Part shown: positions 448 through 49,696 of the stretch, one piece after another
Layout of the letters: each line of letters opens with the position of its first letter
Position numbering within the stretch: the stretch's first letter is position 1
Notes under the pieces: generated by a model
What the model was told of the DNA's origin: nothing
Databases searched by the model: none
What the model saw: the letters and a program-made list of their open reading frames with translations, nothing else
Position numbers and translations under genes: made by a program
Source of the DNA: Teichococcus aerophilus
Lineage (GTDB): Bacteria; Pseudomonadota; Alphaproteobacteria; Acetobacterales; Acetobacteraceae
Reading direction: 5' to 3'
Length of the DNA: 56,575 nt
NCBI RefSeq assembly: GCF_014490485.1
Contig: NZ_JACTVA010000037.1
Coordinates: 1 to 56,575, forward strand

Positions 448-693
448 AAGGTCAGGGGAAGGAATTCCCCTGAAACCCCATCTTTTTTCTGTCCGTTGGC
501 GTGCCGCTTCGGGAGCGGGAGGGGACGCCATGGGACTACAAAGGGCCATCGAGCTGAACCGTCAGGCACCGGAGGTCACACGCCTCAAGCGCGACCCGGC
601 CGGGACGCAAAAACCTGACGCCTCCCCAATCACACCCGAACGACCCGCAGAAAAAAAGATGGGGGTCCGGGGGAATTCCTTCCCTCGGCCTTT
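448..693. repeat. Intergenic inverted-repeat element, copy 1
   Basis: About 246 bp with inverted arms at 448-500 and 642-693. The left arm hairpin is TCAGGGGAA/TTCCCCTGA with loop GGAA, followed by AAACCCCATCTTTTTT. The right arm is the reverse complement type (AAAAAAAGATGGGGGTCCGG and so on). The interior holds a CACCGGAGGTC remnant of the central hairpin. It lies between the 3' ends of gcrA and the phn operon, so each gene reads into an arm oriented as a terminator. Confidence 0.9.
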
Positions 694-718
694 ACCCCAT
701 CCCGAAGGCAAGACGCCC

Positions 719-1564
719 TCACCCCACCGGCGTCTCCCGCACTCCGATCAGCCGCTTACGCACCTTGGCCGAGAGGTAATCGATCACCCCCACCGTGATC
801 ACCATCAGGATGATGATGAACGCCACCTCGTCCCAATGCCGCACCTTGATGCGCTCGGCGATCTGCAGGCCGATGCCGCCGGCGCCGACCACGCCCAGGA
901 TGGCGGCGGAGCGGGTATTGCTTTCGAAAAAGTACAGTGCCTGCGCCAGCATCACCGGCATCACCTGCGGCAGCACGCCGTAGCGCATCGCGTGCAGCCG
1001 GCTGCCACCGGCGGCGATCACGCCCTCGCTCTGCTTCTTCTCGGCATTCTCGATGGCCTCGGCATAGAGCTTGGCCAGCACCGCCATGTCGCTGGTGAAG
1101 ATGGCCAGCACACCGGCCAGCGGCCCCAGCCCCACCGCGCGCACATAGGCCAGCGCCCAGATCAGCTGGTCCACGCCGCGCACACCATCGAACAACCGCC
1201 GGACCGAGAAGCGCAGCAGCGTGACGGTGACGATGTTGCGCGCCCCCAGGAACCCCAGCGGCACCGCCACCAGCGCGGCCAGGAAGGTACCCAGGAAGGC
1301 CATGGCGACGCTTTCCGCCATGCCCTTCAGGATATCCATCCACAACTCGCCCGGGCTCGGCGGCACCATCAGCCGGACGATGACGGCCAGGCCCGACAGC
1401 CCGTTCCAGATGCGGGTGGGCGTGATGTCGAACCACCACAACAGCGTGCCCAGCCACAGGATGAAGGCGGCGCCCGCCACCCAGCGCAGCGCCTTGACCG
1501 CCGGCGTGGGCCCGAAGGCGCGCGGCAGCCGGTTCTGCCAGAGGGCGATATCTGCCTGCGTCAT
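719..1564 (-). CDS. phnE: Phosphonate/phosphate ABC transporter permease PhnE (second permease)
   Basis: 281 aa inner-membrane permease with a hydrophobic segment near residues 30-45 and further segments spread over the rest. The permease coupling region is EGVIAAGGSRLHAMRYGVLPQVMP, and a GVVGAGGIG motif lies near the C-terminus, as in the PhnE/PtxC family of binding-protein-dependent permeases. It should pair with the neighbouring permease, the ATPase PhnC and a PhnD binding protein to import phosphonates or phosphate. Its ATG follows the stop of the upstream permease by one base, so translational coupling is likely. It is the last gene of the operon and reads into copy 1 of the repeat. Substrate specificity cannot be told from sequence. 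Confidence 0.92.
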   Translation of the reverse strand: MTQADIALWQNRLPRAFGPTPAVKALRWVAGAAFILWLGTLLWWFDITPTRIWNGLSGLAVIVRLMVPPSPGELWMDILKGMAESVAMAFLGTFLAALVAVPLGFLGARNIVTVTLLRFSVRRLFDGVRGVDQLIWALAYVRAVGLGPLAGVLAIFTSDMAVLAKLYAEAIENAEKKQSEGVIAAGGSRLHAMRYGVLPQVMPVMLAQALYFFESNTRSAAILGVVGAGGIGLQIAERIKVRHWDEVAFIIILMVITVGVIDYLSAKVRKRLIGVRETPVG

Positions 1565-1565
1565 G

Positions 1566-2465
1566 TCAGTGGCCCTCCGCCGCGCTGCCGATCACCCGGT
1601 GCCGCAACCGCTCGGACACCATGTCGATCAGCACCACCGCCAGCACGATCAGCACGATGATGGCGCTGATCTCCTCATAGTAGTTGGACGAGATCACCAG
1701 GTTCAGCTCCTGCCCGATGCCGCCGGCACCGACGAAGCCGATGACGCTGGCGCCGCGCACGTTGATTTCGAAACGCAGCAGCGCGTAGCTGATGAGATTG
1801 GGCATCACCTGCGGCAGGATGGCGTAGCGGCACGCCTGCGCCCAGTTGGCGCCGGAAGCCCGCAGCCCTTCCCACGGCTTCAGGTCGGCATTCTCGATGA
1901 CCTCGGAGAACAGCTTGCCCAGCGCACCCGCCGTGTGGATGAAGATCGCCAGGATGCCCGCCAACGGCCCGACGCCGAAGGCCCAGACGAAGATCAGCGC
2001 GTAGACGATCTCCGGCACCGTCCGCGCCGCTTCCAGCCCACGCCGCGTGGCGATGTTGATCCAGCGGGCCGGCGCCACGTTGCGCGCGGCGGGGAAGGCC
2101 AGCAGCAGCGCCACCACGGCGCCCGCCAGCGTCGCCAGCGCCGCCATCTGCGAAGTCTGCAGCAACAGCCAGGCCCAGTCGTCCAGCCGGTAGAACCAGA
2201 AGGCGATGCTGCCTTCCGTCCCGGCGCCGGAGAGCAGCGCATGCCACTGCAACGACGGCAGCAGCTTATAGAAATATTCGCCCACGCGCGGCAGGCCGGC
2301 GGCCAGCGAAGCCGGGTAGAACTCGCTGATCCGCGCCGCCAGCAGCAGGCACACGGCCAGTACGGCCAGGGCCAGCAGGCTGGAAAGCCGCCGCTGCCGG
2401 CGTTGCGCCTGGAAGGCCGCCTCGCCGCGCAGGGCGGCGGGATGGGCTGTCACGGCCAGGCTCAT
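1566..2465 (-). CDS. phnE: Phosphonate/phosphate ABC transporter permease PhnE (first permease)
   Basis: 299 aa membrane permease of the same family as the gene that follows it. Visible signatures are EGLRASGANWAQACRYAILPQ in the cytoplasmic coupling loop and GFVGAGGIGQELN near the C-terminus. The N-terminus has a charged cytoplasmic stretch (RQRRLSS) and then a membrane segment. Two PhnE-type permeases in tandem are common in phosphonate transporters and probably form a heterodimeric channel. It starts 20 bp after the upstream phnD paralog. Divergence from its partner is substantial, so the duplication is old. Confidence 0.92.
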   Translation of the reverse strand: MSLAVTAHPAALRGEAAFQAQRRQRRLSSLLALAVLAVCLLLAARISEFYPASLAAGLPRVGEYFYKLLPSLQWHALLSGAGTEGSIAFWFYRLDDWAWLLLQTSQMAALATLAGAVVALLLAFPAARNVAPARWINIATRRGLEAARTVPEIVYALIFVWAFGVGPLAGILAIFIHTAGALGKLFSEVIENADLKPWEGLRASGANWAQACRYAILPQVMPNLISYALLRFEINVRGASVIGFVGAGGIGQELNLVISSNYYEEISAIIVLIVLAVVLIDMVSERLRHRVIGSAAEGH

Positions 2466-2485
2466 GGCTGATGTCTCATGAAGTG

Positions 2486-3478
2486 CTATTCCCGGCGGCG
2501 TCGCGCCGCCGCCTCTTCGCGCCGGAGGTCGATGAAGATCTGGTAGTCGCTGTGCCGCGCCTCGCGGTACCCGGTGCCCTCGCCACGGCTGATCTGCGTG
2601 TAGATGTCCGGATGCGCCTTCGGCAGGCCCAGGAAGAACTGCAGCAGGTCGGCCTTCAGCGCCGCCGGCAGGTCGGACCGGATGGAGATCGGCCCGGTCG
2701 GAATGGGCTCGGACCGCCAGACGATGCGCAGGTCGCTCATCGTCAGCATGCCCTTCTCCACCATCGCCCGCAGGTTGCCCCGGGTGAAGCCGCTATCCTC
2801 CGGCCCCTGACCGGAGGTCCAGGTGCAGGCGGCGTCGTACTGCTTCTGCAACACCGCCACGACGGCCTGCTCATGTCCGCCGGCGAAGCCGGTACGGCTG
2901 AAATACTGCTCGGGGTTCACCCCCTGCCGCCGCAGCGCGGCGCGCGGCACCAGGTACCCGCTGGCCGAATTCGGGTCCGCCCAGGCCAGGGACTTGCCCT
3001 TCATGCCGGCCAGGTCGTCGATGCCGGAATCCGCCCGCGCCACCATCACCGCCAGGTAGCCGATCGAGCCATCCTCCTGCTCTGGCACCACCAGCGGCTC
3101 CACGCCGCCATTGGTATCCAGCCACGCCCCCGCATAGGCGGAGGAACCGAGCGAGGCGATCTCCACCTGCTTCGCCCCAAAGGCCTGGATGGCGCCGGCA
3201 TAGTCGCTGGCCGGATACACCTTCACCGGCACGGCGAAGGTATCCTCCAGCAGCCTGCGGTAGCCGTCGAACCGCGCCATCCGGTCCACCTCGTTCTCCC
3301 CGCCCAGCAGCGCGATGCCGAGATGCGGCTGCTGGTCCGCCCAGGCGCGGCGCCCCGGCGTGGGGAAGGTGACATCGGCATCCACGCTCCGCCGCGGCGC
3401 CGCCTGCGCGCGCGCCACCGCCGGCAACAGCGCCGTGGCGGCAAGGGTGGTCGTGATCTGGCGACGGGTCATCAACAT
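2486..3478 (-). CDS. phnD: Phosphonate/phosphate ABC transporter substrate-binding protein PhnD, paralog 1
   Basis: 330 aa periplasmic binding protein. I start it at the ATG at 3478 (MLMTRRQ) because it gives an export signal (TRRQ, then a hydrophobic run ending in ARAQA, possibly Tat type); the open frame upstream only reads through the adjacent repeat. The body carries motifs of the PhnD/PtxB fold: LLGGENEVDRMARFDGYR, KSLAWADPNSASGYLVP and SRTGFAGGHEQAVVAV. It is strongly similar to the second binding protein upstream in the operon, so it is a tandem paralog. An intergenic repeat with terminator-like arms separates the two, so this gene and the permeases may be expressed at a lower level or from their own promoter. 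Confidence 0.93.
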   Translation of the reverse strand: MLMTRRQITTTLAATALLPAVARAQAAPRRSVDADVTFPTPGRRAWADQQPHLGIALLGGENEVDRMARFDGYRRLLEDTFAVPVKVYPASDYAGAIQAFGAKQVEIASLGSSAYAGAWLDTNGGVEPLVVPEQEDGSIGYLAVMVARADSGIDDLAGMKGKSLAWADPNSASGYLVPRAALRRQGVNPEQYFSRTGFAGGHEQAVVAVLQKQYDAACTWTSGQGPEDSGFTRGNLRAMVEKGMLTMSDLRIVWRSEPIPTGPISIRSDLPAALKADLLQFFLGLPKAHPDIYTQISRGEGTGYREARHSDYQIFIDLRREEAAARRRRE

Positions 3479-3586
3479 GGCAGGGCTTTCACGGCGCAAC
3501 GGGCCAAAACGGGCAAAGTCTCTTGCGCCAGTAAGGCACGGAGGCCGCCCGCCAGCCAGTATTGCCGCCGATGTGTCGGCGTGGGG

Positions 3587-3838
3587 AAAGGCCAGGGGGA
3601 ATGAATTCCCCGCGGACCCCCCTTCTTCTTTTTGCGAGTCCAGGACCGTGCGAATGGCCTGAGGGTGGCGCAATGGGCAAAGCCTGTCGTTCAAAAAGGC
3701 CACGCTCGTGGAACCCTCAGTCACCGGGGGTCTCGGACCCCTGGCGTCGCCCCGGAGCGTGCCGCGCCCAAGGCCGAAACCGCTCCAACACCGCAGAAAA
3801 AGAAGGGGGCCTGGGGGAATTCCTTCCCCCAGCCTTCC
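3587..3838. repeat. Intergenic inverted-repeat element, copy 2 (inside phn operon)
   Basis: About 252 bp. The left arm (3587-3640) has CAGGGGGAATGAATTCCCCG then CTTCTTCTTTTT. The right arm (3795-3838), read on the minus strand, gives a GGCTGGGGGAA/TTCCCCCAGCC-type hairpin and CCCTTCTTTTT. The centre holds a variant of the family hairpin (GGGGGTC/GACCCC) after AACCCTCAGTC. It lies between two same-strand operon genes, with phnD paralog 2 reading into the right arm. Confidence 0.9.
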
Positions 3839-3873
3839 TCACCCCAGAACCTTCAAGCGGCGCCCGGTACCAA

Positions 3874-4854
3874 TCAGGACCGGCGGCGACGCTCCGCCGC
3901 TTCCTCGCGGCGCAGCTGCACGATCGGCTCGAACTGGGCGTGCGTCACGCGGGCATAGCCCTTGCCGCCGCCGCGCTCGATCGCCTCGTAGATCGCCGGG
4001 TGGGCGGCAGGCAGCGCCAGGTGCAGATTGGTGAAGTCTTCCTTGAAGGCCGCCGGCAGGTCGCTGCGGACCACCAGCGGGCCGTTCAGGATCGGGCGGG
4101 ACTTCCAGATGATGCGCATGTCGCCCATGTTCAGCATCCCCTTCTCCACCATCGCGCGCAGATTGCCGCGGGAGAAGCCCTGCGCCTCGTCGCCGATGCC
4201 GGATGCCCAGGTCACGGCGGCGTCGTACTGCTTCTGCTGCACGGCGACGACGGCCTGCTCGTGCCCGCCGGCGAAGCCGGTGCGGCTGAAGTAGCTGTTG
4301 ATGTCGATGTTGGACCCGCGCAGCTCGGAGCGCGGCACCAGGTAGCCGGACGTGGAGTTCGGGTCGGCCCAGGCCAGGGACTTGCCGCGCATCTGCTCCA
4401 GGCTGGTGATGCCGGAGTCCTTCCGCACGATCATGACCGAGATGTAGGAGATCGAGCCGTCATTCTCCAACGGCACCACCAGCGGCTCCACGCCGCCATT
4501 GGTGTCCAGCCAGGTGCCGGCATAGCCGGACGCACCCATGGAGGACGCCTCGATCTGCTTGGCGGCGAAGGCCTGCATCACGCCCGAGTAATCGGCAGCG
4601 GGGTACAGCCGCGTCGGCACCTTGAAGGTGTCCTCGATCAGCTTGCGGTAGCCGTCGAAGCGGCCCAGCCGGTCGCCTTCATTCTCACCGCCCAGCAGGC
4701 CGATGCGGATCTGCGGCACCTGCTTGGCCCAGGCGCGCTCGCCCACGGCCGGCATGGCGGCGGTGGCACCGGAAGCGGCGCCTTGGGCGCGCAGGGAAGC
4801 GGGCAGCACCAGAGAGCCGGCCGCCAGGGCGGCCAGGGAACGACGCGTAATCAT
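3874..4854 (-). CDS. phnD: Phosphonate/phosphate ABC transporter substrate-binding protein PhnD, paralog 2
   Basis: 326 aa secreted binding protein with signal peptide MITRRSLAALAAGSLVLPAS ending near RAQGA. GGAG lies 8 bases before the ATG at 4854. The same landmarks as in paralog 1 are present: LLGGENEGDRLGRFDGYRK, KSLAWADPNSTSGYLVP, SRTGFAGGHEQAVVAV and MVEKGMLNMGDMRIIW. By eye roughly two thirds of aligned residues match the downstream paralog. It follows phnC by 45 bp and is clearly in the same transcript. The two binding proteins may differ in ligand (phosphonate, phosphite or phosphate), which sequence reading cannot settle. Confidence 0.93.
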   Translation of the reverse strand: MITRRSLAALAAGSLVLPASLRAQGAASGATAAMPAVGERAWAKQVPQIRIGLLGGENEGDRLGRFDGYRKLIEDTFKVPTRLYPAADYSGVMQAFAAKQIEASSMGASGYAGTWLDTNGGVEPLVVPLENDGSISYISVMIVRKDSGITSLEQMRGKSLAWADPNSTSGYLVPRSELRGSNIDINSYFSRTGFAGGHEQAVVAVQQKQYDAAVTWASGIGDEAQGFSRGNLRAMVEKGMLNMGDMRIIWKSRPILNGPLVVRSDLPAAFKEDFTNLHLALPAAHPAIYEAIERGGGKGYARVTHAQFEPIVQLRREEAAERRRRS

Positions 4855-8298: not shown

Positions 8299-8350
8299 GG
8301 AAAGGCCGGGGGAAGGAATTCCCCCGGACCCCCATCTTCTTTTTGCGGTG
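8299..8350 (+). repeat. Solo arm of the intergenic element family
   Basis: Left-type arm only: hairpin GGCCGGGGGAA/TTCCCCCGG with loop GGAA, then ACCCCCATCTTCTTTTT. It begins 1 bp after the stop codon of the upstream gene, so it is placed as an intrinsic terminator. A complete copy begins 220 bp downstream. The DNA between them (8351-8572) shows no gene that I can support. Confidence 0.85.
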
Positions 8351-8572: not shown

Positions 8573-8821
8573 AGGGAAGGTCAGGGGAAGGAATTCCTCT
8601 GCGTAAACGTATACGTTGACGCCATCTTTTTTCTGTCAGTCGGCATGGGATACGGGGCCAGCAGGTGCGACCGTGACAAAGATCACGGGCCATCTGGACT
8701 GAACCAGCAGCCTCCGGCGTCACCCTGGTCCGGGCCTGGAAAAGCCGACGCCGCCACATCCACGACCGAAAGACTCGCAGAAAAAAGAAGGGGTCCGGGG
8801 AATTCCTTCCCCGGCCTTCCT
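8573..8821. repeat. Intergenic inverted-repeat element, copy 3, with inserted palindrome
   Basis: About 249 bp with arms at 8573-8640 and 8776-8821. In the left arm the GAAACCCC segment after the hairpin is replaced by a 23-bp palindromic sequence (8601-8623) centred on ACGTATACGT. The T-tract follows immediately after. The right arm is standard (CCGGGGAATTCCTTCCCCGG). The element lies between convergent genes, and the minus-strand SDR gene ends 21 bp to the right. Confidence 0.88.
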
Positions 8822-12311: not shown

Positions 12312-12560
12312 GGGAAGGTCAGGGGAATGAATTCCCCTGAAACCCTATCTTTTTTCTGCGAGTTTGGCGTGGGCTTCAGGACTGGCAGGCCCAGCCTGGA
12401 TGAAAATCAAAAGCCTGATCCAGGCCCGCAGTCATCGGAGGTCATGAACCTCGTGCGCCGCCCCGGGCCAAGGCTCGCGAAGACCGACGCCCCCACAACC
12501 ATGCCCGAAAGACTCGCAAACAAAAGATGGGGTCCGGGGAATTCCTTCCCCGGCCTTCCT
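12312..12560. repeat. Intergenic inverted-repeat element, copy 4
   Basis: About 249 bp with arms at 12312-12370 and 12510-12560. The left hairpin is TCAGGGGAA/TTCCCCTGA with loop TGAA, the same compensated stem as copy 1. The right arm is the CCGGGG type. The interior has CATCGGAGGTC and GAACCTC, a degraded central hairpin. It lies between convergent phnW and the phosphodiesterase gene. Confidence 0.9.
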
Positions 12561-14474: not shown

Positions 14475-14512
14475 GCGTCGTGTGGGGCTGCCTTCTCCGC
14501 AGGCTGTCGGCG

Positions 14513-14762
14513 GAAGGCCGGGGAATGAATTCCCCGGACCCCTTCTTTCTTCTGCGCGTTTGGCGTGGCGCTTCAGGAATGAGAACTGGACGCTTTGATG
14601 ATTTAAATAACGGGCCACGCGGGCTGGACCCTCAGTCGCCGGAGGTCCTGGACCTCCGGCGCACCCAGCCGTCTCTCAAGACCACGCCTTCAACGGCCAC
14701 GCCGTCAAGAACTCGAAAAAAAGGAAAAGAAGGGGCCCGGGGAATTCCTTCCCCGGCCTTCT
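14513..14762. repeat. Intergenic inverted-repeat element, copy 5
   Basis: About 250 bp and one of the most complete copies. Arms are at 14513-14565 and 14710-14762, and an intact central hairpin GGAGGTCCTGGACCTCC follows the family phrase GGACCCTCAGTCGCC. Both arm hairpins are of the CCGGGG/CCCCGG class, the left with loop TGAA. The minus-strand gene on the right reads into the right arm 9 bp after its stop. Confidence 0.92.
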
Positions 14763-14770
14763 TTCCCCCT

Positions 14771-16740: not shown

Positions 16741-16943
16741 AGAAAGGCCCGGGAAGGAATTCCCCGGGCCCCTTCTTTTTTCTCTTCGGTTTTTACCGGC
16801 GTGGCCGTCGGAACGCGCAGCCCGTCTGAGCCCAGACGAGGCACGATCCTGCACCCGCCGTTCCAGAGGCCTCATGCCAACTGACAGAAGAAAGACGGCG
16901 TAAACGTATACGTCTACGCAGGGGAATTCATTCCCCCGAGCTT
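16741..16943. repeat. Intergenic inverted-repeat element, copy 6, with inserted palindrome
   Basis: About 203 bp, with a shortened interior. The left arm (16741-16795) starts 10 bp after the M20 stop and has GGCCCGGG/CCCGGGCC pairing and a TTCTTTTTT tract. In the right arm (16890-16943) a 23-bp palindrome at 16897-16919 stands between the A-rich tract and the GGGGAATTCATTCCCC hairpin, replacing the usual GGGTCC. It is the same palindrome, in mirrored orientation, as in copy 3. Confidence 0.88.
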
Positions 16944-16954
16944 GCCGTCCCGCC

Positions 16955-20770: not shown

Positions 20771-20819
20771 CCCCCTCTAACGGCGTAACCCGGGCCGGGA
20801 TGCGCTTCAGCGGTGGAGC

Positions 20820-21065
20820 GAAGGCCGGGGAAAGAATTCCCCGGGCCCCTTCTTTTCCTTCTTCGAGCTTGGCGTTGCGCCTCAGGACTGAGAGCGGACG
20901 CCGCTTGATGATTTTCATAATGGCCACAAGGGCTGAACCCGCAGTCGCCGGAGGTCTAGGACTCCGGCGCACCCAGCCGTCTTTAGGAACTGCCCTACCA
21001 ACAGCCACGCCCGAAAACTCGCAGAAAGAAAAGAAGGGGCCCGGGGAATTCTTTCCCCGGCCTTC
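20820..21065. repeat. Intergenic inverted-repeat element, copy 7
   Basis: About 246 bp, complete. The left arm is at 20820-20873 (hairpin CCGGGGAA/TTCCCCGG, loop AGAA, then GCCCCTTCTTTTCC) and the right arm at 21015-21065. The central hairpin GGAGGTCTAGGACTCC is slightly degraded. It lies between the start of the mgtC-like gene and the end of the LysR gene, both minus strand; LysR reads into the right arm 20 bp after its stop. Confidence 0.92.
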
Positions 21066-21085
21066 CTCCCCACCCAGCAAAACCA

Positions 21086-24607: not shown

Positions 24608-24634
24608 AACACTCGGCGCTCCTTCGGGGAAGCA

Positions 24635-25091
24635 AAAAGCCGGGGAAAGAATTCCCCGGTCCCCTTCTTTTCTTTTTTCGAGTTTTGTGGGCGCGGATGT
24701 TCAGAGGTCTGTCTGACCTGAGACACGGCCTGTCTGCGCTAGGGGTCCCTGACGTTGCTATGGACTACCCGTTAGAAGCCGATATTGCTGTGCCGCCGAT
24801 GAGAAAAAATATAATTAAATCAATAGTTTGAACCCAACCCCGTGAACCTTTGGTAAGTATTACGGATCTGCGTTCAAGCATCTGGCATTCCTGCACCCGC
24901 GTACCGCAGGAAGGTGAAGTAGATCAGCGAATCAAAAGCCGCCATCACAGCATTATAATTTCAGCGCATGCGGTCCCAGCCCGTCTCGCCCACGATAAAC
25001 ATCTTCAAAGAGGCGTCCACTCCCACCCCTGAAGCACCGACGCCAAACTCGAAAAAAGAAGATGGGGCCTGGGGAATTCCTTCCCCAGCCT
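24635..25091. repeat. Intergenic inverted-repeat element, copy 8, enlarged AT-rich interior
   Basis: 457 bp, about twice the usual length. The left arm (24635-24690) has CCGGGGAA/TTCCCCGG; the right arm (25050-25091) carries the compensated CTGGGG/CCCCAG stem. The interior, especially 24770-24990, is unusually AT-rich (ATATAATTAAATCAATAG) and shows no central family hairpin or gene. Foreign DNA may have replaced or entered the core. Confidence 0.85.
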
Positions 25092-25135
25092 ACCGCTTCC
25101 CCGCCGAGCCACCAGGCACGGAAGCCGAACCACGC

Positions 25136-25948: not shown

Positions 25949-26192
25949 GGAAGGCTGGGGAAAGAATTCCCCAGACCCCTTCTTTTATTTCTGCGAGCTT
26001 GGCGTGGCGCCTCGGGACTGAGCGGACTCTCTTAATGATTTTAACAATGGGCCACGCGGGCTGAACCCTCAGTCGCCGGAGGTCCAAGACCTCCGGCGCA
26101 CCCAGCCGTCCCTCAAGACCGACCCTTCAGCAGCGCCCCAGCAAGACTCGAAAAAAGAAGATGGGGTCCGGGGAATTCCTTCCCCGGTCTTC
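25949..26192. repeat. Intergenic inverted-repeat element, copy 9
   Basis: About 244 bp, complete. The left hairpin is CTGGGGAA/TTCCCCAG with loop AGAA; the right hairpin is of the CCGGGG class, so the two arms of one copy differ by a compensated pair. The central hairpin GGAGGTCCAAGACCTCC and the phrase CTGAACCCTCAGTCGCC are present. tsaC (minus strand) reads into the right arm. Confidence 0.92.
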
Positions 26193-26221
26193 CCTCAACC
26201 GACCACCAAGCGACTCCCCCG

Positions 26222-27957: not shown

Positions 27958-28001
27958 GATGCCCTCTGCTTTAAGGCCTGGCGGGCCGGGGGGGAAGCAA
28001 G

Positions 28002-28327
28002 CAAGGCCGGGGAAAGAATTCCCCAGACCCCATCTTTCTTTTTTGCTGTTTTGGCGGGTCGGCTGTGGGGGCGGCCGTCCACAGACCTCAGCCATCCGGA
28101 GCGCGACACAGGTCAGCCCCCAGCCGCTGGCAGATCAGCGGCCCCATTCTCGTCACCCAGGCACCATCCAGCACAGCTCCCGAGCCCGGCCTCCACCAGG
28201 TGGATCTTCTGAAAATCGCGCCCGGCGACGCCGCGCGCATCTTCCCGCCAGCGAGAGCGCCCCTCAAGCACCACACAAAACGCGCAGAAAAAAGACGGGG
28301 CCTGGGGAATTCCTTCCCCAGCCTTCC
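28002..28327. repeat. Intergenic inverted-repeat element, copy 10 (between divergent genes)
   Basis: 326 bp with arms at 28002-28052 and 28280-28327. The left hairpin has one mismatch (CCGGGGAA with TTCCCCAG); the right is the CTGGGG/CCCCAG class. The interior is diverged and has no clear central hairpin. This is the only copy placed between two gene starts (cysQ left, GT2 right), so it cannot serve as a 3' terminator there. Confidence 0.87.
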
Positions 28328-28435
28328 TTCCCTAGCGCCCAAGGCGCGGCCCCCTTGATGCACACCCGCACCCCGCCCACCCTGTCCATCCCGCCAAGCC
28401 GCCCCACATCCCCCGGGACGCATTCAGGACCTTCC

Positions 28436-29368: not shown

Positions 29369-29390
29369 GGGTCACCTCCTGAAGGGACTA

Positions 29391-29634
29391 AAGGCCGGGG
29401 AAAGAATTCCCCGGACCCCTTCTTTTTTCTGCGAGTTTGGCGTCAGGCTGCGGGACTGAGAGCGGCGCTGCTTGATGATTTTTACAAATGGGCACCAGGG
29501 CTGAACCCTCAGTCGCCGGAGGTCCCCGACCTCCGGCGCACCCAGCCATTCGTCAGAACTACCCCTGCGACAGCCACAAGCAAAAACTCAAAAAAGAAAA
29601 AGATGGGGTCCGGGGAATTCCTTCCCCGGCCTTC
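29391..29634. repeat. Intergenic inverted-repeat element, copy 11
   Basis: About 244 bp, complete. The left hairpin CCGGGGAA/TTCCCCGG has loop AGAA then ACCCCTTCTTTTTT; the right arm is standard. The centre carries GGAGGTCCCCGACCTCC after GAACCCTCAGTCGCC. It lies between two plus-strand genes, starting 23 bp after the GT2 stop, so only the left arm faces a gene end. Confidence 0.92.
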
Positions 29635-29722
29635 ACCCGCCCCCCAACGCCCCTGCTTTCGCCAATTCCGCCCCCGCCCATCCCGCTGTAGGATTCCGCC
29701 AGATTGAAAGCAGGCGAACCAC

Positions 29723-31221: not shown

Positions 31222-31275
31222 AAAAGGCCGGGGAAGGAATTCCCCGGACCCCTTCTTTTCCTTTTGCGCGTTTGG
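31222..31275 (+). repeat. Solo arm of the intergenic element family
   Basis: Left-type arm with perfect CCGGGGAA/TTCCCCGG hairpin, loop GGAA, then ACCCCTTCTTTTCC and GCGTTTGGCG, placed 24 bp after the amidase stop. No right arm is found in the 500 bp that follow. It is suitable as the amidase terminator. Confidence 0.88.
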
Positions 31276-31793
31276 CGTTCGGGCCAAACGTGAGGGCCAG
31301 CGCCTTGGATGTTTCAAAGCCACGCTGCCTCAACCGAGAGCGAAAGCCACACGGTCCAGCGAAAGCCATTATGCCCGATGGATACGGCATGCTCCAGCAG
31401 CAAGCGCTGAACCCTGCCCTTAAAAGAGCCATGCCGCTGCCATTCCTTCAAACGATGAAGGCCAGAACAGCACAAAATCTAAATCAGCGCAGCAGAGCTG
31501 GAGCGTTGTGGCTTGAAGCGGAACCACCGAAAAGCCTGAAGCACGCGATCACACAAAGATCGAAAGCCGGGTGCATGAGCAAATATCAACGTGTCACGCT
31601 CTAAAGGATCTACGATCCGCCAGGAATCGCCACCCGCACGCCACCTCCAAGATTCTGACACGCTCCCCAAAAGGACGGCCGCGATGGACACAGACAGCCC
31701 CAGGCCACATCCACCTCCCCTGCAAGATCAACCTGCCAGCGTCACGCCCTCACGCAAGCGGCTCCCCACCCGCCGCCCCGCAGGCGCCCACCT
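31276..31793. other. Intergenic region made of repeat fragments
   Basis: 518 bp without a supported gene. It contains a copy of a second repeat family (31498-31605). A short stretch near 31383-31396 (CGGCATGCTCCAG) resembles the right end of another copy. Base composition is less GC-rich than the surroundings. Confidence 0.5.
31498..31605. repeat. Second intergenic repeat family, copy A (about 108 bp)
   Basis: Inverted ends (CTGGAGCGTTGTGGC and GTGTCACGCTCTAAAG) enclose CCACCGAAAAGCCTGAAGC and CGCGATCA. It aligns over its whole length with a copy at 47682-47786, which shares GAGCGT-GGCTTG, ACCGAAA-GCCTGAA and the inverted end. It is unrelated to the hairpin-arm family. Confidence 0.75.
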
Positions 31794-32437: not shown

Positions 32438-32687
32438 AAAAGGCCGGGGAAGGAATTCCCCGGACCCCGCCTTTTCTTTCCGCGAGTTTGGCGTCACGCC
32501 GAAGAATCGAGCCGACGCCGCCTGATGATTGTTAAAATGGTCCACCTGCGCTGAGCCCTCAGTCGCCGGAGATCCAAGACCTCCGGCGCACCCGGCCGTC
32601 TCTCAGGTTCAACCCATCAACAGCCACACACCCGAAAACTCGAGAAAGTAAAAGAAGGGGCCCGGGGAATTCCTTCCCCGGCCTTCC
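32438..32687. repeat. Intergenic inverted-repeat element, copy 13
   Basis: About 250 bp, complete, with CCGGGGAA/TTCCCCGG hairpins in both arms and a central GGAGATCCAAGACCTCC. The phrases GACGCCGCCTGATGATTG, AACCCATCAACAGCCAC and GAAAGTAAAAGAAGGGG are shared nearly word for word with copy 14, in the same orientation 3.9 kb away. The histidine kinase gene reads into its right arm 26 bp after its stop. The copy number skips 12, which is the solo arm at 31222. Confidence 0.92.
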
Positions 32688-32713
32688 CCTCCCTCACAAT
32701 CCAGGCCGCCAGT

Positions 32714-36297: not shown

Positions 36298-36547
36298 AAG
36301 GGAAGTCCGGGGAAGGAATTCCCCGGACCCCTTCTTTTTCCTGCGAGCTTGGCGTCACGCCTCGGAACTGGGCGGACGCCGCCTGATGATTGATGAAATA
36401 GACCACGCGGGCTGAACCCTCAGTCGCCGGAGGTCCTGGACCTCCGGCACACCCAGCCACCTCTCGGGCGCAACCCATCAACAGCCACAGCAGAAAAACT
36501 CGAAAAAGTAAAAGAAGGGGCCCGGGGAATTCCTTCCCCGGCCTTCC
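36298..36547. repeat. Intergenic inverted-repeat element, copy 14
   Basis: About 250 bp, complete, with CCGGGGAA/TTCCCCGG hairpins and loops GGAA in both arms and the central hairpin GGAGGTCCTGGACCTCC after GAACCCTCAGTCGCC. It closely matches copy 13, suggesting a recent common origin. The MFS gene reads into the right arm 17 bp after its stop. Confidence 0.93.
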
Positions 36548-36564
36548 CTGACCACCCTCCCCGG

Positions 36565-38411: not shown

Positions 38412-38996
38412 ATGTCGCGTTGGGGCGAATTATTCTCGGGCGCCGGACTGGGCCTCCTGGTCGGCCTGCTGATGGGCCTCTCCGCCGCCTCTGTCGTCGG
38501 CAGCATCCTCGCCGCCCTCGCCGCGGCCTTCGCCGCCTTCTTCGGGCTGGTCCCCAATGTTGGCACGGGCCACGGCCTGCGCGTCGGCGCCTTCGGCCTG
38601 GCCTGCGCGGTGGGCGTCCTCGGCGGCCTTACCCTGCGCACCGGCGCCATCGGCCTCGCCCCCAGCATCCACGCCGATGTCGCCGCCTGGCAGGCCGCCG
38701 GCTACCCGGCGGAGGAAGCCAGGGCGCTGGTCGCCTTCCAGCGCCTCGGCGTCCGGCCGAAGGCGCTGGAGGTCGGGCCACGCCCCAACGCCGGCATCGT
38801 CGACCCGGTGCTGTTCTCCACCGTCACCGACCTCTGCGGCCGCCTCAACCGCCTGCCGCCGCCCGAGGCGCTGAACCTGTTGCGGGACCCGACGGCCGGG
38901 TCGGTCGGCAACGCCCTCGCCACCGGCCTGCAAGCCTCGCCGGAGGCCGCGCGGCCCGAGACCGTCCGCCGGGCGGTCGCTGCCCTGTGCAACTGA
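38412..38996 (+). CDS. Hypothetical membrane protein, 194 aa
   Basis: 194 aa, not recognised. Three hydrophobic segments occupy the first 85 residues (LGLLVGLLMGLSAASVVG, ILAALAAAFAAFFGLV and GLACAVGVLGGLTL). A soluble C-terminal part follows with YPAEEARALVAFQRLGVRP and two cysteines (DLCGRLNRLPPPEAL and the final ALCN). GGAG lies nine bases before the ATG at 38412. The end overlaps the proposed start of the trypsin-like protease by 10 bp, so the two form an operon; a role connected to the protease, for example as membrane partner, is a guess from this arrangement. Confidence 0.7.
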   Translation: MSRWGELFSGAGLGLLVGLLMGLSAASVVGSILAALAAAFAAFFGLVPNVGTGHGLRVGAFGLACAVGVLGGLTLRTGAIGLAPSIHADVAAWQAAGYPAEEARALVAFQRLGVRPKALEVGPRPNAGIVDPVLFSTVTDLCGRLNRLPPPEALNLLRDPTAGSVGNALATGLQASPEAARPETVRRAVAALCN

Positions 38997-40519
38997 CCCG
39001 GCACGGCACACAGGCTCCGCACGGCACCCAGGCTCCGCACCGCGCCCAGCTTCCACACGGCGCCCAGGCTCCGCACGGCACCGGGGCTCCGCGCGGCGCC
39101 CGCCGCGCGCTGGCCGCCCTCGCCGCCTGCGCCACCCTTGCCGCCCACCCGGCCGCCAGCCAGCCCAGCCGGGAGGTCCTTGATGGCGCAGCACCCGCCA
39201 TCGTGCGGGTCATCGCCTCCGGCTGCGGTGGTACCGCCCGCGGCGGCACCGGCTTCGCCTGGGAATCCGCCGGGCAGATCGTCACCGCCCTGCATGTCGT
39301 GGCGGGGTGCGATACGCTGCGCGTCAATTTTCAGGGCATCGGTGAACGCCCCGCCCGCGTCGCCCGCCTGTTCCGCCCGGCCGACCTCGCCCTGCTGGCG
39401 GTAGACCAGCCACCCACGCTCACCCCGCTCCTCGCCTCCACCCGCATTCCCGTGGGGGAGACCGTCATGGTCTTCGGCTACGGCCTCGATACCTCGACGC
39501 GGGAAGAACGGCCGCTCTACGTCACCACCGCCAGCACTAGCACCCCGCTGTTGTCGGACGCGGTGAACGCCGAGGCCCGCACCCAGCTCCTCTCCCTCGG
39601 CGCCCCCGCGCTGGAGACCGAGATCTTGCGCGTGGACGGCAACCTCCTGCCGGGCCATTCCGGCGCGCCGGTGCTGGATGCCGCCGGTCGCGTCGTCGGC
39701 ATCGGCTCCGGCGGCCTGCAGCGCGGCACCGTCGGCGTCGGCTGGGCCATCCGGGCCCGCTACCTGGCGGAACTGGCCCGCGCGCCCGCCCTGGCGGATG
39801 GCCGTGCCCCCGGCCTCGGCACCGCCCCCAACAGCCCCGGCTACGCCACCCTGGTACTGGGCGCCGGCGCTCTGCGCGCCCGCTGCGGGCAGCTGGATTT
39901 CATCCGCTCCCGCACCGGCCTCTCCCTGGCCACCCTCGTCGCCTCGTCGGACGACCAGCGCGGCTTCCAGTCCATCGCCATGACCGCCGGCCGCCCCTGG
40001 GACGTCCTGGCCGCGATGCAATTCGACATCTGGACCGAGCAGCGCAGCGGCGCCGGCGTCGCCGTCCCCGCCGGCGGCACGCTCACCCCCCAGGCCCATG
40101 GCTGCACCGCCCGCTGGGCCAACGGCCTGGTCGACCTTTTCGTCAGCGGCGCCGACGTGCCGGCCGCCAACGACCCCACCTGGCCCATGGCGGTGGAGCT
40201 GACGACAAGCGCCTTCGGCAACGCCTGGGCCCAGGAATTCCTGCCCTTCCTGCAGATCGACCCTGGATTCTCCTACGGCCCGCCCCGCTCCGGCCCCGGC
40301 GGCCTGCTCATCAACCGCATGACCTTCATCGGCCAACGCCCCGGCCAAGTGCCCCACGCCGCCTTCCAAACCCTCCTGGCCAAGGGCAATGCCACCATCG
40401 GCGTCGCCGCCATCACCCGCCACTACCCCTATCCGATGACCCCGCCCCCCGACGAAGCCACCTACCGCGCCTGGGTCGCCGCCGCCCTCGCCGCCTACCT
40501 CTCCACCGTGCCGCCCTAG
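38987..40519 (+). CDS. Trypsin-like serine protease with N-terminal hexapeptide repeats
   Basis: 510 aa from a GTG at 38987 that overlaps the upstream gene; the exact start is uncertain. Residues 6-35 are five tandem HGTQAP-type hexapeptides, then RRALAALAACATLAAHPAAS looks like a signal peptide. The protease domain contains the triad His103 (VTALHVVAGC), Asp133 (PADLALLAVD) and Ser225 (LPGHSGAPVLD), so it should act in the periplasm. A C-terminal region of about 250 residues has no recognised domain and includes paired cysteines (LRARCGQL, AHGCTARW). The hydrophobic signal would be internal if translation starts at 38987; initiation further downstream cannot be excluded. Confidence 0.78.
   Translation: MQLTRHGTQAPHGTQAPHRAQLPHGAQAPHGTGAPRGARRALAALAACATLAAHPAASQPSREVLDGAAPAIVRVIASGCGGTARGGTGFAWESAGQIVTALHVVAGCDTLRVNFQGIGERPARVARLFRPADLALLAVDQPPTLTPLLASTRIPVGETVMVFGYGLDTSTREERPLYVTTASTSTPLLSDAVNAEARTQLLSLGAPALETEILRVDGNLLPGHSGAPVLDAAGRVVGIGSGGLQRGTVGVGWAIRARYLAELARAPALADGRAPGLGTAPNSPGYATLVLGAGALRARCGQLDFIRSRTGLSLATLVASSDDQRGFQSIAMTAGRPWDVLAAMQFDIWTEQRSGAGVAVPAGGTLTPQAHGCTARWANGLVDLFVSGADVPAANDPTWPMAVELTTSAFGNAWAQEFLPFLQIDPGFSYGPPRSGPGGLLINRMTFIGQRPGQVPHAAFQTLLAKGNATIGVAAITRHYPYPMTPPPDEATYRAWVAAALAAYLSTVPP
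39002..39091 (+). repeat. Tandem 18-bp repeat, five copies
   Basis: Five head-to-tail 18-bp units with consensus CACGGCACCCAGGCTCCG, starting at 39002, 39020, 39038, 39056 and 39074. They are in frame with the protease ORF and encode H-G-T/A-Q-A/L-P. Copy 3 is the most diverged. In-frame units of this kind can change number by slippage. Confidence 0.9.
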
Positions 40520-40540
40520 CCGGGCGTGGTGACAAAGCGG

Positions 40541-40866
40541 GAAGGCCGGGGAAGGAATTTCCGGACCCCTGCTTTTTCCCTGCGGGTTTTGGTTGGCATC
40601 AGGGCCGGACGTGCAGGCTCGTTGTGAAAAGCCGCCCTCCGCGCAGGCGCTTAGCTTTCCGAAAACGATCTCCCCGTCACACTTCAAGCGATCGCTGCGA
40701 AGCAGGGCCCTGCAAGGATATGAAAACTCACCGTGGCTGAACCACCCACCGCCAATCGCGCGAGACCCCACCGCGACAAGGCCAAGTCTTCAAACATCCG
40801 CTCCCAATAGCGCCGACCAGAAACTCGAAGAAGATGGGGTCCGGGGAATTCCTTCCCCGGCCTTCC
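40541..40866. repeat. Intergenic inverted-repeat element, copy 15
   Basis: 326 bp. The left arm (40541-40590) is damaged (GGGGAAGGAATTTCCGG, one stem base lost) and the right arm (40825-40866) is intact. The interior is longer than usual and lacks the central hairpin. It lies between two plus-strand genes, 22 bp after the protease stop. Confidence 0.85.
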
Positions 40867-41068
40867 GCCCGCCAAGCCGGTACGGAACACATCCACCCGG
40901 GTACAGCTCCCCCACGCCCCAGCCCCTCCCATCCGCAGCCTGGAAAATGGCGCCCGTGGCATTCCTTCGCCGCTCATCGCCCCCGCCCATGGCGCCCCCG
41001 ATCCGCCATGCTATCCTGGCCTGACGATCCAGCCCCTCCCCATCCCTCACCGATGGAACCTGCCGCCC

Positions 41069-42544: not shown

Positions 42545-42548
42545 GCAA

Positions 42549-43009: not shown

Positions 43010-43068
43010 AAAGGCTGGGGGAAGGAATTCCCCCAGCCCCCCATCGTCTGTTTGCCAGTCTGCCTGAC
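43010..43068 (+). repeat. Solo arm of the intergenic element family
   Basis: Left-type arm with an 11-bp compensated stem GGCTGGGGGAA/TTCCCCCAGCC, loop GGAA, then CCCCATCGTCTGTTTGCC; the T-tract is interrupted. It is placed after holC. No right arm is found downstream. Confidence 0.85.
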
Positions 43069-46385: not shown

Positions 46386-46441
46386 TGCACTCGGGGGCAC
46401 CGGAGGAAGCTCCGTCCCCGGTGCCGCCATGCTTTCAGCGA

Positions 46442-46670
46442 GAAGGCCGGGGAAAGAATTCCCCGGACTCCTTCTTTTCTTTTTCGAGTTTCAGGGCCGG
46501 GCTTTTGAACGGGCGATCCCGAAAGACGGCTGGGTGCGCCGGAGGTCCCGGACCTCCGGCGACTGAGGGCTCAGCCCGCGCGTTAAGCAGCGCAATCTCC
46601 CGGTCCCGCAGCCTGACGCCAAACTCGCAGAGAAAAGAAGGGGGCTGGGGAATTCTTTCCCCAGCCTTCT
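46442..46670. repeat. Intergenic inverted-repeat element, copy 17 (core inverted)
   Basis: 229 bp with arms at 46442-46490 and 46628-46670. The right hairpin is CTGGGG/CCCCAG, the left CCGGGG/CCCCGG. The interior is reversed relative to most copies: GACGGCTGGGTGCGCC, then GGAGGTCCCGGACCTCC, then GACTGAGGGCTCAGCC, the mirror of the usual GGCTGAACCCTCAGTC order. It lies between convergent gst and the diguanylate cyclase gene. Number 16 is the solo arm at 43010. Confidence 0.92.
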
Positions 46671-46720
46671 CCATCACCCAAGCCGTCACGCCCCGGCGCC
46701 CGGCCTGAAGCCCCCGCGCG

Positions 46721-47653: not shown

Positions 47654-47681
47654 ACTGATCCAGACGTGTTCGAAGCCGAGC

Positions 47682-47786
47682 CTAGAGCGTGATGGCTTGG
47701 GATGGAAATACCGAAAGCCTGAATCCCGCAATCAAACATCAGCCGAGACCATGGTGCGTGAACGAATGTGAACGCACCATGCTCCA
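47682..47786. repeat. Second intergenic repeat family, copy B (about 105 bp)
   Basis: Ends CTAGAGCGTGATGGCTTG and GAACGCACCATGCTCCAG are imperfect inverted repeats. The internal ACCGAAAGCCTGAATCCCGC and AATCA align with copy A at 31498-31605. It lies just upstream of the diguanylate cyclase gene. Confidence 0.78.
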
Positions 47787-47878
47787 GGCAAGGGCGGCCC
47801 GCCCGGCAAGCACGCAAGCGCCCCCTGCCCGCGCCGCCCCGCGCAGTCCGCAGCGTGGCTTTGACTCCCCCGCTTAAC

Positions 47879-47890
47879 GTTGATATCAAC
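47879..47890. promoter_or_regulatory. Palindromic operator candidate upstream of the DUF899 gene
   Basis: GTTGATATCAAC is a perfect 12-bp palindrome 66 bp before the DUF899 start, in a locally AT-rich patch (TTAACGTTGATATCAACC). It has the look of a dimeric repressor site (ArsR or similar). No regulator gene adjoins it. Confidence 0.45.
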
Positions 47891-47955
47891 CTATCACGCC
47901 GGCGCCCACGACCGGCCCATAACGGAAACGCCACCGGACACACCGGAGAATGACC

Positions 47956-48705
47956 ATGCTGCACAACCGCATCGTCTCCCGCGAAGAATGGCTCGACGCA
48001 CGCCGCACCCACCTGGCGCGGGAAAAAGCCCTGACCCGGGAACAGGACCGCCTGAACGAGGAACGCCGCGCCCTTCCCTGGGTGCGGGTGGACCAGGCCT
48101 ATACCTTCCAGACGCCGCAGGGCCCGCAGCCGCTCGCCGCCCTGTTCGGCCCGCGCAGCCAGCTCATCACCTACCATTTCATGCTGGCCCCGGGCTGGGA
48201 TGCCGGCTGCACCGGCTGCTCCTTCGGTGCCGACCATTTCGATGGCATGCTCCCCCACCTGGAGGCCGCCGATACCCGCCTCGTCGCCGTCTCCCGCGCC
48301 CCCCTGGTGGAGATCGAAGCCTACCGCCAGCGCATGGGCTGGCACTTCCCCTGGGTCTCCTCCGCCGGCGGTGACTTCAACCGGGACTTCCACGTCTCCT
48401 TCCCGCCAGACAGCGTCCAGGACGGGCAAGTGGACTACAACTTCACCCGCACCGACCTGCCGCACGGGATGGACGAGCTGCACGGCCTCAGCGTGTTCTA
48501 CAGGGACGCCGAGGGGCAGGTCTTCCACACTTATTCCAGCTACGCCCGCGGCACCGAGCACCTGCTCGGCACGATGCTGCTGCTGGACCGCGTGCCGAAA
48601 GGCCGCAACGAGCACGGCACGATGGACTGGGTACGCCGTCACGACGAGTACGCCTCCGCCGAGCCCGCCGCCTGCTGCCACGCCGCCGCACCCCTGGCCT
48701 CCTGA
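47956..48705 (+). CDS. DUF899 family (thioredoxin-fold) protein
   Basis: 249 aa from ATG 47956, which has GGAGA seven bases upstream; the ATG at 47950 lies too close to that site. The family pattern is clear: RIVSREEWLDARRTHLAREK, LTREQDRLNEERRALPWVRV, TYHFMLAPGWDAGCTGCSFG ADHFDG, MGWHFPWVSSAGGDFNRDFH VSF and VFHTYSSYARGTE. The CTGCS cysteines lie where a thioredoxin-like redox site would be. Biochemical role unknown. It probably forms a transcription unit with the DUF1579 gene 153 bp downstream. Confidence 0.9.
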   Translation: MLHNRIVSREEWLDARRTHLAREKALTREQDRLNEERRALPWVRVDQAYTFQTPQGPQPLAALFGPRSQLITYHFMLAPGWDAGCTGCSFGADHFDGMLPHLEAADTRLVAVSRAPLVEIEAYRQRMGWHFPWVSSAGGDFNRDFHVSFPPDSVQDGQVDYNFTRTDLPHGMDELHGLSVFYRDAEGQVFHTYSSYARGTEHLLGTMLLLDRVPKGRNEHGTMDWVRRHDEYASAEPAACCHAAAPLAS

Positions 48706-48858
48706 CCCCGTCCGGGCGGCGCCCATCCGCCCGGCCACCACCACGCCCCCCCTTGCCCACACCCACGTGCCCAACCCGCAGCGCTCAGCCCACCGGCCCA
48801 GGCGCCCAGCAAACACCACGGGCCAACAAAGGCCGCCACATCACCGGGAGATGACGAC

Positions 48859-49335
48859 ATGCATGTAGACCCCCAGGCCGAACACCGCTGGCTGCAACGA
48901 CTGGTCGGAGGCTGGACCTTCGAAACCACCTGCTCCATGGGCCCCGACCAGCCCCCCGCCCAATCCAAGGGCAGCGAACAGGTCCGCGCCCTCGGCGACA
49001 TCTGGATCCTCGGCGAGGGCGAAGGCGAAATGCCCGGCGGCGGCATCGGCCGCACCCTCATCACCCTGGGCTACGACCCGCTGAAATGCCGCTTCACCGG
49101 CAGCTTCATCGGCTCGATGATGACGCATCTCTGGCATTACAACGGCACCCTGCAAGGTGACGTCCTGACGCTCGACACCGAAGGCCCCAGCTTCAACGAT
49201 CCCAACCAGATGTCGCAGTACCAGGATATCGTGACCATCCGCTCGGACAGCGAACGCACCCTCGCCTCCCGCGTCCGCCTGCCCGACGGCAACTGGCACG
49301 ACTTCATGTCCGCCACCTACCGCCGCGTCACCTAG
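48859..49335 (+). CDS. DUF1579 domain protein
   Basis: 158 aa from ATG 48859 with GGGAG eight bases upstream. The region HRWLQRLVGGWTFETTCSMG P, LGDIWILGEGEGEMPGG, TLGYDPLKCRFTGSFIGSMM and DSERTLASRVRLPDGNW follows DUF1579, a lipocalin-like small-molecule-binding barrel of unknown role. DUF1579, DUF899 and similar genes are often neighbours, which fits the gene before it. The stop is 25 bp from repeat copy 18. Confidence 0.85.
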   Translation: MHVDPQAEHRWLQRLVGGWTFETTCSMGPDQPPAQSKGSEQVRALGDIWILGEGEGEMPGGGIGRTLITLGYDPLKCRFTGSFIGSMMTHLWHYNGTLQGDVLTLDTEGPSFNDPNQMSQYQDIVTIRSDSERTLASRVRLPDGNWHDFMSATYRRVT

Positions 49336-49360
49336 GGCGCCGCTCGGAGGAAGGCAGCGA

Positions 49361-49696
49361 ACGCCGGGGAAGGAATTCCCCGGACCCCTTCTTTTCTTTT
49401 TCGGTTTTTGGATGGGCTTGTGACGAAGCTGGTCCGGGGCCAGGCCGGTTCGTGCCGGAGGTCCTGGAGCAGATTTCTATCAGGTCGCATCACCTGATGC
49501 AGTGAAGATGCTCTTCAAAACAACAGGCCAGAGCATGGGAGGTCAGCCTGTGCGGATGGAAAATGCTCTAAACCTCCGGCGACTGCCGGTTCAGCCCTGG
49601 CGACCCATCATCAAAAGCGTCCGCCCTCACATCGGAAACCCGACGCCAAACCCGCAGAAAAAAGCAGCGGTTCGGGGAATTCCTTCCCCGACCTTC
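49361..49696. repeat. Intergenic inverted-repeat element, copy 18, with nested insertion
   Basis: 336 bp with arms at 49361-49410 and 49655-49696. The central hairpin is split: CCGGAGGTCCTGG (49454-49466) and ACCTCCGGCGAC (49572-49583) flank about 105 bp of another repeat (49467-49571). Without that insert the element would be about 231 bp, the family length. Confidence 0.9.
49467..49571. mobile_element. Third repeat, nested in copy 18 (about 105 bp)
   Basis: Inverted ends GAGCAGATTTC and GGAAAATGCTCT enclose an internal palindrome CAGGTCGCATCACCTG. It interrupts the central hairpin of copy 18 at its axis, with at most one or two bases of the host sequence duplicated or lost. It resembles the ends (GAGC...GCTC) of the second repeat family but has a different interior. 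Confidence 0.75.

What the first reader, a model, noticed from the sequence alone, without database searches (positions are those of the whole stretch)
448..49696. Dense family of about 240-bp inverted-repeat elements between genes
Sixteen complete elements and three solo arms occur in 56.6 kb, all intergenic. Each complete element has mirrored arms of about 45 bp, an internal phrase (CTGAACCCTCAGTCGCC) and a central hairpin GGAGGTC/GACCTCC in the better preserved copies. Seven lie between converging genes, eight between tandem genes and one between diverging genes. At this density a whole genome would hold about a thousand copies or more. I know of no named repeat family with this sequence (the known families I can compare are REP/BIME, ERIC, Correia and NEMIS).
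Basis: partly seen in the sequence, partly recalled or inferred. Interest (0 to 1): 0.9.

Follow-up and report, generated by a model that had tools for sequence, protein, structure and literature searches.

The report
Repeated two-way transcription stop elements
This bacterium carries several hundred copies of a 250-base repeat whose two ends each look like a transcription stop signal pointing inward, mostly placed right behind genes, and the ends have stayed almost unchanged while the middles drifted.

Summary
Genome-wide there are 752 arm matches, reversed control 0.

Each arm reads inward as hairpin plus T-tract, the layout of an intrinsic terminator. In copies found only by their middle, 115 of 134 arms match perfectly at 15 scored positions, while middles differ from consensus by a median 16%. 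The strongest covariation lies inside single arms. In a sample, 60 of 104 convergent junctions hold two or more arms. No target-site duplication and no Y1-transposase match were found.

New here: the arms are genus-wide with clade-specific spacing. The central core also sits between different arms without a T-tract ("type B") in sister species; one junction is type A here, type B in G007 and empty in G002.

Best reading: an old non-autonomous repeat whose ends are kept as terminators. Termination is inferred, not measured. Type-B copies favour the same sites, so placement alone proves nothing. How it spread is unknown.

The parts
447..697 (+). Element E1, convergent junction; absent from the orthologous junction in G001 and G002
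3588..3836 (+). Element E2, tandem junction; the orthologous junction holds a type-B element in G007 and none in G002
8301..8345 (+). Solo arm (5-C type)
8577..8820 (+). Element E3, convergent; left arm carries an extra hairpin
12314..12560 (+). Element E4, convergent
14512..14763 (+). Element E5, tandem
16742..16945 (+). Element E6, convergent; right arm carries an extra hairpin
20817..21067 (+). Element E7, tandem; absent from the orthologous junction in G001 and G002
24634..25095 (+). Element E8, convergent, long spacer
25949..26194 (+). Element E9, tandem
28001..28328 (+). Element E10, divergent
29389..29636 (+). Element E11, tandem; reference copy
29389..29430 (+). E11 left arm: hairpin then T-tract, read inward on the + strand
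29515..29537 (+). E11 central hairpin of the core
29594..29636 (-). E11 right arm: hairpin then T-tract, read inward on the - strand
31222..31279 (+). Solo arm downstream of the 29735-31198 gene
32438..32688 (+). Element E12, tandem
36301..36548 (+). Element E13, tandem; in G015 the orthologous genes are almost adjacent (27 bp between alignment ends)
40540..40867 (+). Element E14, tandem
43010..43060 (+). Solo arm (5-C type); the orthologous gene end in G006 carries a full element
46441..46671 (-). Element E15, convergent
49358..49698 (-). Element E16, convergent; about 100 bp inserted at the tip of the central hairpin

Best explanation
An old, non-autonomous interspersed repeat of about 250 bp built as two inward-facing intrinsic terminators (45-50 nt arms) around a spacer with a central hairpin core. 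Transcription arriving from either side meets the hairpin first and the T-tract next, so the element should stop RNA polymerase from both directions and insulate neighbouring genes. Shown: the architecture, the several hundred copies, absence from orthologous junctions in sister genomes for some copies, the tight retention and covariation of the arms, the drift of the middles, and the position behind stop codons. Inferred: that the arms terminate transcription in the cell, and that selection for termination keeps them. Unknown: what copied the element; no target-site duplication and no Y1 transposase were found, and the 77 aligned copies (at most 91.5% alike) show no recent activity.
For: Layout: in 158 of 171 arms (at most 1 mismatch, recognisable tail) the stem base folds to within 3 nt of the T-tract; the inward tail has 6 or more T in 10 in 165 of 171, the outward side, best of six frames, in 19 of 194. 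Retention: 67 copies found by the internal part alone have 134 arms, 115 with 0 of 15 mismatches (mean 0.19; shuffled control 7.06), against a median internal divergence of 16% in the 77 aligned copies. Converse: of 93 internal hits, 75 keep both arms, 17 one, 1 none. Covariation: the outer stem pair is Watson-Crick in 254 of 279 arms, all four types (CG 172, TA 34, GC 28, AT 20); the two top covarying column pairs each lie within one arm. Placement: convergent 59 against 20.5 +/- 4.1 expected, divergent 8 against 28.9 +/- 4.7, of 115 pairs; stop-to-arm median 28 bp, start-to-arm 144 bp; 43 of 48 tandem copies lie in the half next to the upstream stop. Of 37 classified solo arms 28 face the gene that would run into them. 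Insertion: E1, E7, E13 and E2 are absent from orthologous junctions in one or two relatives each.
Against: No transcript data. Type-B elements, whose arms lack a T-tract, prefer the same sites (26 convergent, 11 tandem, 0 divergent of 37, some of them orthologues of each other), so placement may reflect insertion or tolerance rather than termination. The inner stem is 8 nt from the T-tract, and the GAAGG/CCTTC base stem that closes the gap does not covary with the CCATC tail variant. A strict terminator scan of 20 kb gives 15 hits against 9.3 +/- 3.0 in shuffles; by my reading 7 lie on arms, 2 inward and 5 outward. 9 of 37 solo arms face the wrong way. A solo arm in a Pseudoroseomonas cervicalis plasmid lies behind a gene reading into its opposite face. 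No TSD and no transposase, so mobility rests on copy number and empty sites.
Confidence: 0.72

Rival explanations
1. A selfish MITE-like repeat with no host function: copies survive only where insertion is harmless, behind genes, and arms look conserved because they were needed for transposition.
For: The T-tract-less type B shows the same site preference; convergent enrichment is also seen for IS elements and other repeats in pneumococcus (passages of PMC3049150).
Against: The 77 aligned copies are old (pairwise median 0.775, maximum 0.915), yet arms changed far less than middles, with base-pair compensation. Mobility needs explain the master copy, not retention in decayed ones.
Confidence: 0.17
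2. REPIN-like element: two inverted REP hairpins once moved by a tyrosine (Y1/RAYT) transposase, single-stranded and without target-site duplication.
For: Paired inverted hairpins, intergenic, no TSD.
Against: No Y1_Tnp match in this genome and only a 36-position fragment in 1 of 17 genus genomes; the hairpin foot is AAGG in 163 of the 195 arms with at most 1 mismatch, not GTAG or CGTC.
Confidence: 0.06
3. Hairpins acting at the DNA or RNA-stability level (protein binding, mRNA 3'-end protection), with the T-tract incidental.
For: Stable hairpins behind stop codons; the apex GAATTC is nearly invariant.
Against: All four Watson-Crick pairs at the outer stem argue against one fixed protein site; 253 of 279 arms carry a CCCC[AT]TCTTTT-like tail, and it is one-sided.
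Confidence: 0.05

Closest known systems
[quoted passage not shown] PMC3049150, passages read)
   Same: Interspersed repeat folding as hairpin plus U-rich tract, enriched between convergent genes and near 3' ends, proposed as co-opted terminator.
   Different: SPRITE: 30 copies in one genome, AT-rich, one hairpin. Here: several hundred copies, GC-rich, two inward-facing terminators around a core shared with another element type.
REP/BIME/REPIN with RAYT (PMC3733652 passages; PMC3116915 listing only)
   Same: Inverted pairs of small hairpins, intergenic, high copy number.
   Different: No GTAG/CGTC tag at the foot, no Y1 transposase found, a T-tract, about 250 bp.
Caulobacter CIR elements (PMC2229807 passages)
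   Same: Alphaproteobacterial intergenic repeats of about 110 bp, only partly MITE-like.
   Different: Their GANTC motif is absent from the 251-bp consensus.
Correia/NEMIS, RUP, ERIC (PMC2229807 passages; partly recalled)
   Same: Small non-autonomous inverted-repeat elements.
   Different: Most of those have TA ends and duplicate the target; no duplication seen here.
Neisseria inverted DNA-uptake sequences as terminators (mentioned in PMC3049150)
   Same: Repeats doubling as terminators.
   Different: There two 10-bp repeats form one hairpin; here each arm has the full layout.

Membership tests
Intrinsic (Rho-independent) terminator | GC-rich hairpin closely followed by a T-tract | tested here: met
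   stem base 0-3 nt from the T-tract in 158 of 171, mean 7.6 T of 10; a stricter scan flags few inward arms
Intrinsic (Rho-independent) terminator | RNA 3' ends at the T-tract | not testable with these tools
   No transcript data
MITE moved by a DDE transposase | Target-site duplication | tested here: not met
   lengths 2-6, 8 and 9 at offsets 2-13, no excess worth noting; divergence lowers but does not remove power
MITE moved by a DDE transposase | Parental IS with the same ends | not tested
   Only unpaired arms in the 850-kb sample were looked at (three arm pairs, two enclosing four genes each, which I did not identify); no DDE family was searched
REP/REPIN | GTAG or CGTC tag at the hairpin foot | tested here: not met
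   AAGG at 163 arms
REP/REPIN | RAYT (Y1) transposase in the genome | tested here: not met
   no match in own genome; fragment in 1 of 17 genus genomes
SPRITE | Terminator-like repeat enriched between convergent genes | tested here: met
   59 of 115 against 20.5 expected
SPRITE | Sequence homology to the pneumococcal repeat | not tested
   Sequences not compared; GC-rich here, AT-rich there
CIR | Conserved GANTC | tested here: not met
   none in consensus; 26 of 77 copies have one somewhere
Any Rfam family | Match at gathering score | tested here: not met
   0 in the window; only sub-threshold matches on E11

The most novel reading that the evidence does not exclude
A modular repeat with exchangeable ends. 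A genus-wide core (GGCCACGCGGGCTGAACCCKCAGTCGCCGGAGGTCnnnGACCTCCGGCG) sits between T-tract-less arms (type B) in sister species and between terminator arms (type A) here, the two arm types sharing the plan CCGGGG..CCCCGGACCCC..T[TG]CGAGTTT. Gaining or swapping the terminator ends turned an inert 3'-end repeat into a portable two-way transcription stopper, which then spread until it stood in more than half of the sampled convergent junctions, in effect replacing native terminators. A bolder side reading is that the matching lengths of the stem G-run, stem C-run and downstream C-run (all three equal in 217 of 241 arms, Spearman 0.84), plus a GA/TC/TC three-strand change in three G003 arms, mark an RNA triple helix; shared ancestry of a few arm lineages explains this about as well.
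Probability: 0.35. Interest if true: 0.75.

Novelty: new variant of a known kind. Interest (0 to 1): 0.6.

Why it matters
If the arms terminate transcription, a mobile repeat has supplied a large share of one species' gene ends, so the spread of a selfish repeat and the rewiring of transcription termination become one measurable process. Hundreds of diverged copies with strict arms form a natural mutation scan of a GC-rich alphaproteobacterial terminator, and related species with and without the element offer matched gene junctions for testing it.

Tried and rejected
RAYT/REPIN origin: Y1_Tnp searched in own genome and genus, one fragment only. Target-site duplications: none. A long hairpin joining left and right arms: the consensus folds that way (-154 kcal/mol), but no left-right Watson-Crick pair is among the 45 top covarying column pairs. 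A coding function: the internal frame is not preserved between copies (read by eye); longest stop-free stretch of the consensus 60 codons. Rfam: nothing at gathering, chance-level matches below it. Phage carriage: no match. Autonomous partner: three pairs of unpaired arms, two enclosing genes, not followed up. Arms in named relatives: none in the 80 loci. Literature: nine searches listed no paper that I could recognise as being on this family; I judged listings by title and start of abstract and read passages of five papers. The organism could not be named: the one genome-contig scan may leave out the window's own record; the family Acetobacteraceae and closeness to Roseomonas/Pseudoroseomonas are inferred.

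Dropped rows: 38 of 115 pairs had internals too decayed to orient and were left out of the 77-copy alignment; 12 of 49 solo arms at stretch ends or inside genes were not classified; 26 of 93 internal hits were incomplete and left out of the retention test; run-length parsing succeeded for 241 arms only. The 850-kb sample was chosen mainly from contigs known to carry arms, so densities and junction occupancy are biased upward. The 40 core loci were taken from the best listed matches, not at random, and several are orthologues of each other. Gene calls are my own codon-model calls, not annotation.
Full report
Observation. The window is G000:C72 of a 5.66-Mb genome in 140 contigs. Genome-wide the arm 19-mer gives 752 matches at up to 2 mismatches, reversed control 0. 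A full element as BLAST query has 579 first-look candidates of which 40 were scored, the full-length ones at 82-86% identity apart from itself.

Anatomy. In 41 stretches (850,229 bases, window included) I found 279 arms at up to 3 mismatches and 115 convergent pairs, spacing peaking at 213-219. Seventy-seven of the 115 could be oriented and aligned; consensus 251 bp; pairwise identity median 0.775, maximum 0.915. This is an old radiation without recent copies in the sample. The arm reads GAAGGCCGGGGAA-NGAA-TTCCCCGGACCCCTTCTTTTTTCTGCGAGTTT from the outside inward. Ten arms carry an extra palindrome at the ACC bulge (seven classed so, three more under 'other').

Terminator reading. Folding the RNA up to the T-tract puts the stem base 0-3 nt from it in 158 of 171 arms, and the next ten bases hold 7.6 T on average. 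The tail is one-sided: 6 or more T in 10 inward in 165 of 171 arms, outward (best of six frames) in 19 of 194. The tail class is present in 253 of 279 arms. The outer stem pair is CG 172, TA 34, GC 28, AT 20, other 25. Counting only the pairs my pattern allowed at no cost (C or T with G or A), 10 of 216 are not Watson-Crick where independence predicts about 64 (my arithmetic). In mutual information across the 77 copies the two top column pairs are arm stem pairs (226/243 and 9/26), with 225/244 also high; lower ranks mix in neighbours and unpaired columns, and no left-right Watson-Crick pair is among the 45 listed. Against this, a strict terminator scan of 20 kb gave 15 hits against 9.3 +/- 3.0 in shuffles, and of the seven on arms five read outward.

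Retention. To avoid selecting for arms, I found copies by the internal part only. Of 93 hits, 75 have both arms, 17 one, 1 none. In the 67 with complete internals, 134 arms average 0.19 mismatches in 15 positions (115 have none; shuffled control 7.06), against a median 16% divergence of the internals in the 77 aligned copies. That is roughly ten-fold slower change in the arms.

Placement. Of 115 pairs, 59 are convergent (20.5 expected), 48 tandem (65.6), 8 divergent (28.9) under random placement by free intergenic length. Junctions with two or more arms: 60 of 104 convergent, 48 of 474 tandem, 8 of 108 divergent; stop-to-arm median 28 bp (n=166), start-to-arm 144 bp (n=64). In tandem junctions 43 of 48 lie in the upstream half. 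The sample was drawn mainly from arm-bearing contigs.

Origin. Orthologous junctions lack E1 in G001 and G002, E7 in G001 and G002, and E13 in G015; in G007 the E1 junction has a single arm-like hairpin. No target-site duplication was seen. Y1_Tnp has no match. How the element was copied remains open.

Genus-wide arms. A looser arm pattern hits 16 of 17 genus genomes (G000 477, G011 212, G010 186, G003 139, G008 none) and, outside the genus, G043 (10) and G042 (1), of 58 genomes searched, control 0. A 31-mer at up to 3 mismatches hits 9 of 299 family genomes, in genera g1, g28 and g44. Paired arms have clade-specific spacing: G003 82-157 (7 pairs, five at 96-101), G007 74-168 (15 pairs), G006 203-229 (6), G000 median 216 (107), G010/G011 commonly about 189 (read from the capped list). 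Behind the gene where G000 has E4, G001 and G002 hold a single solo arm.

Core and type B. The internal part alone hits 8 of 17 genus genomes: G000 58 matches, G013 51, G006 44, G002 26, G001 18, G007 11, G015 4, G009 1, with at most 40 candidates scored per genome. I fetched 40 of the listed loci from G001, G002 and G013: by a lax pattern 37 have at least one different arm (GCCGGGGTGGAAAGTCCACCCCGGACCCCGC-like, no T-tract) and 3 have terminator arms. The 37 type-B elements are 26 convergent, 11 tandem and 0 divergent, typically with a stop codon close to an edge; several are orthologues of one another, so these are not 37 independent insertions. Counts of the left type-B arm at up to 2 mismatches: G013 45, G002 39, G000 25, G001 14, G006 13, G015 13, G005 4, G007 1, nine genomes none; a laxer pattern also finds some in sampled stretches of G003, G009 and G007.

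Same junction, different ends. With both flanking genes matched and adjacent I can compare four junctions. L275 (G013, type B) against L074 (G000, type A with the same core, same orientation). L265 (G001, type B) against L059 (G000, a short terminator-arm pair without the core). L267 (G013, type B) against L051 (G000, type B kept, core decayed). And window E2: type A in G000, type B with the core reversed in G007, no element in G002. With one flank matched (L242, L247, L248, L250, L255/L278, L259, L263, L264), G000 shows terminator arms in five (L242, L250, L259, L263, L264; core orientation same in L250 and L263, opposite in L259) and type-B remains in three. These are few, and since many sampled convergent junctions here carry type A, chance co-occupancy is not excluded.

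What this changes. Because type B prefers the same sites without a T-tract, placement alone does not show termination; the case rests on one-sided T-tract layout, arm retention and within-arm compensation. The nearest known parallel is SPRITE in pneumococcus (PMC3049150, passages). I class this as a new variant: paired inward terminators on an exchangeable-end core.

Noticed in passing
window 49358-49698 (E16): About 100 bp inserted at the tip of the central hairpin, with its own inverted ends (AGAGCA..TGCTC), apparently another small repeat nested in this one.
   Followed up: no
L047:8226, L062:4314, L065:4302, window 8583 and 16920, and G043: Arms with an extra palindrome (such as GCGTAAACGTATACGTTGACGC or ATCAAACCTATAGGTTTGAT) placed at the bulge between hairpin and T-tract; also seen in another genus.
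   Followed up: partly
arms in G000, G003, G007, G006 and others: Length of the C-run after the hairpin tracks the stem run lengths (all equal in 217 of 241 arms); in three G003 arms a GA insertion in the stem is matched by TC in the tail. Shared ancestry or a third strand.
   Followed up: partly
G000:C1 (L067-L070): The 285-kb contig C1 is poor in arms (6 in 80 kb sampled against 279 in 850 kb overall); it may be a separately acquired replicon.
   Followed up: no
window 2648-3230 and 4036-4618: Two neighbouring genes share about 75% DNA identity over several hundred bases, a local gene duplication.
   Followed up: no
window 38984-39109: An 18-bp tandem repeat lying mostly between two called genes.
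   Followed up: no
L065, around 17390-17450: A type-B left arm in G000 followed by a tandem array of 9-bp units (CAGCTTCGC).
   Followed up: no
window 328-346: A near-symmetric hairpin with flanking A and T runs behind the 3-263 gene that looks like an ordinary two-way terminator, about 100 bp before element E1.
   Followed up: no
L282 (Pseudoroseomonas cervicalis plasmid pL11-B): A 42-bp solo arm at 97.6% identity lies 16 bp past a stop codon; the only named organism with the arm in the plasmid search (two of its plasmids).
   Followed up: partly
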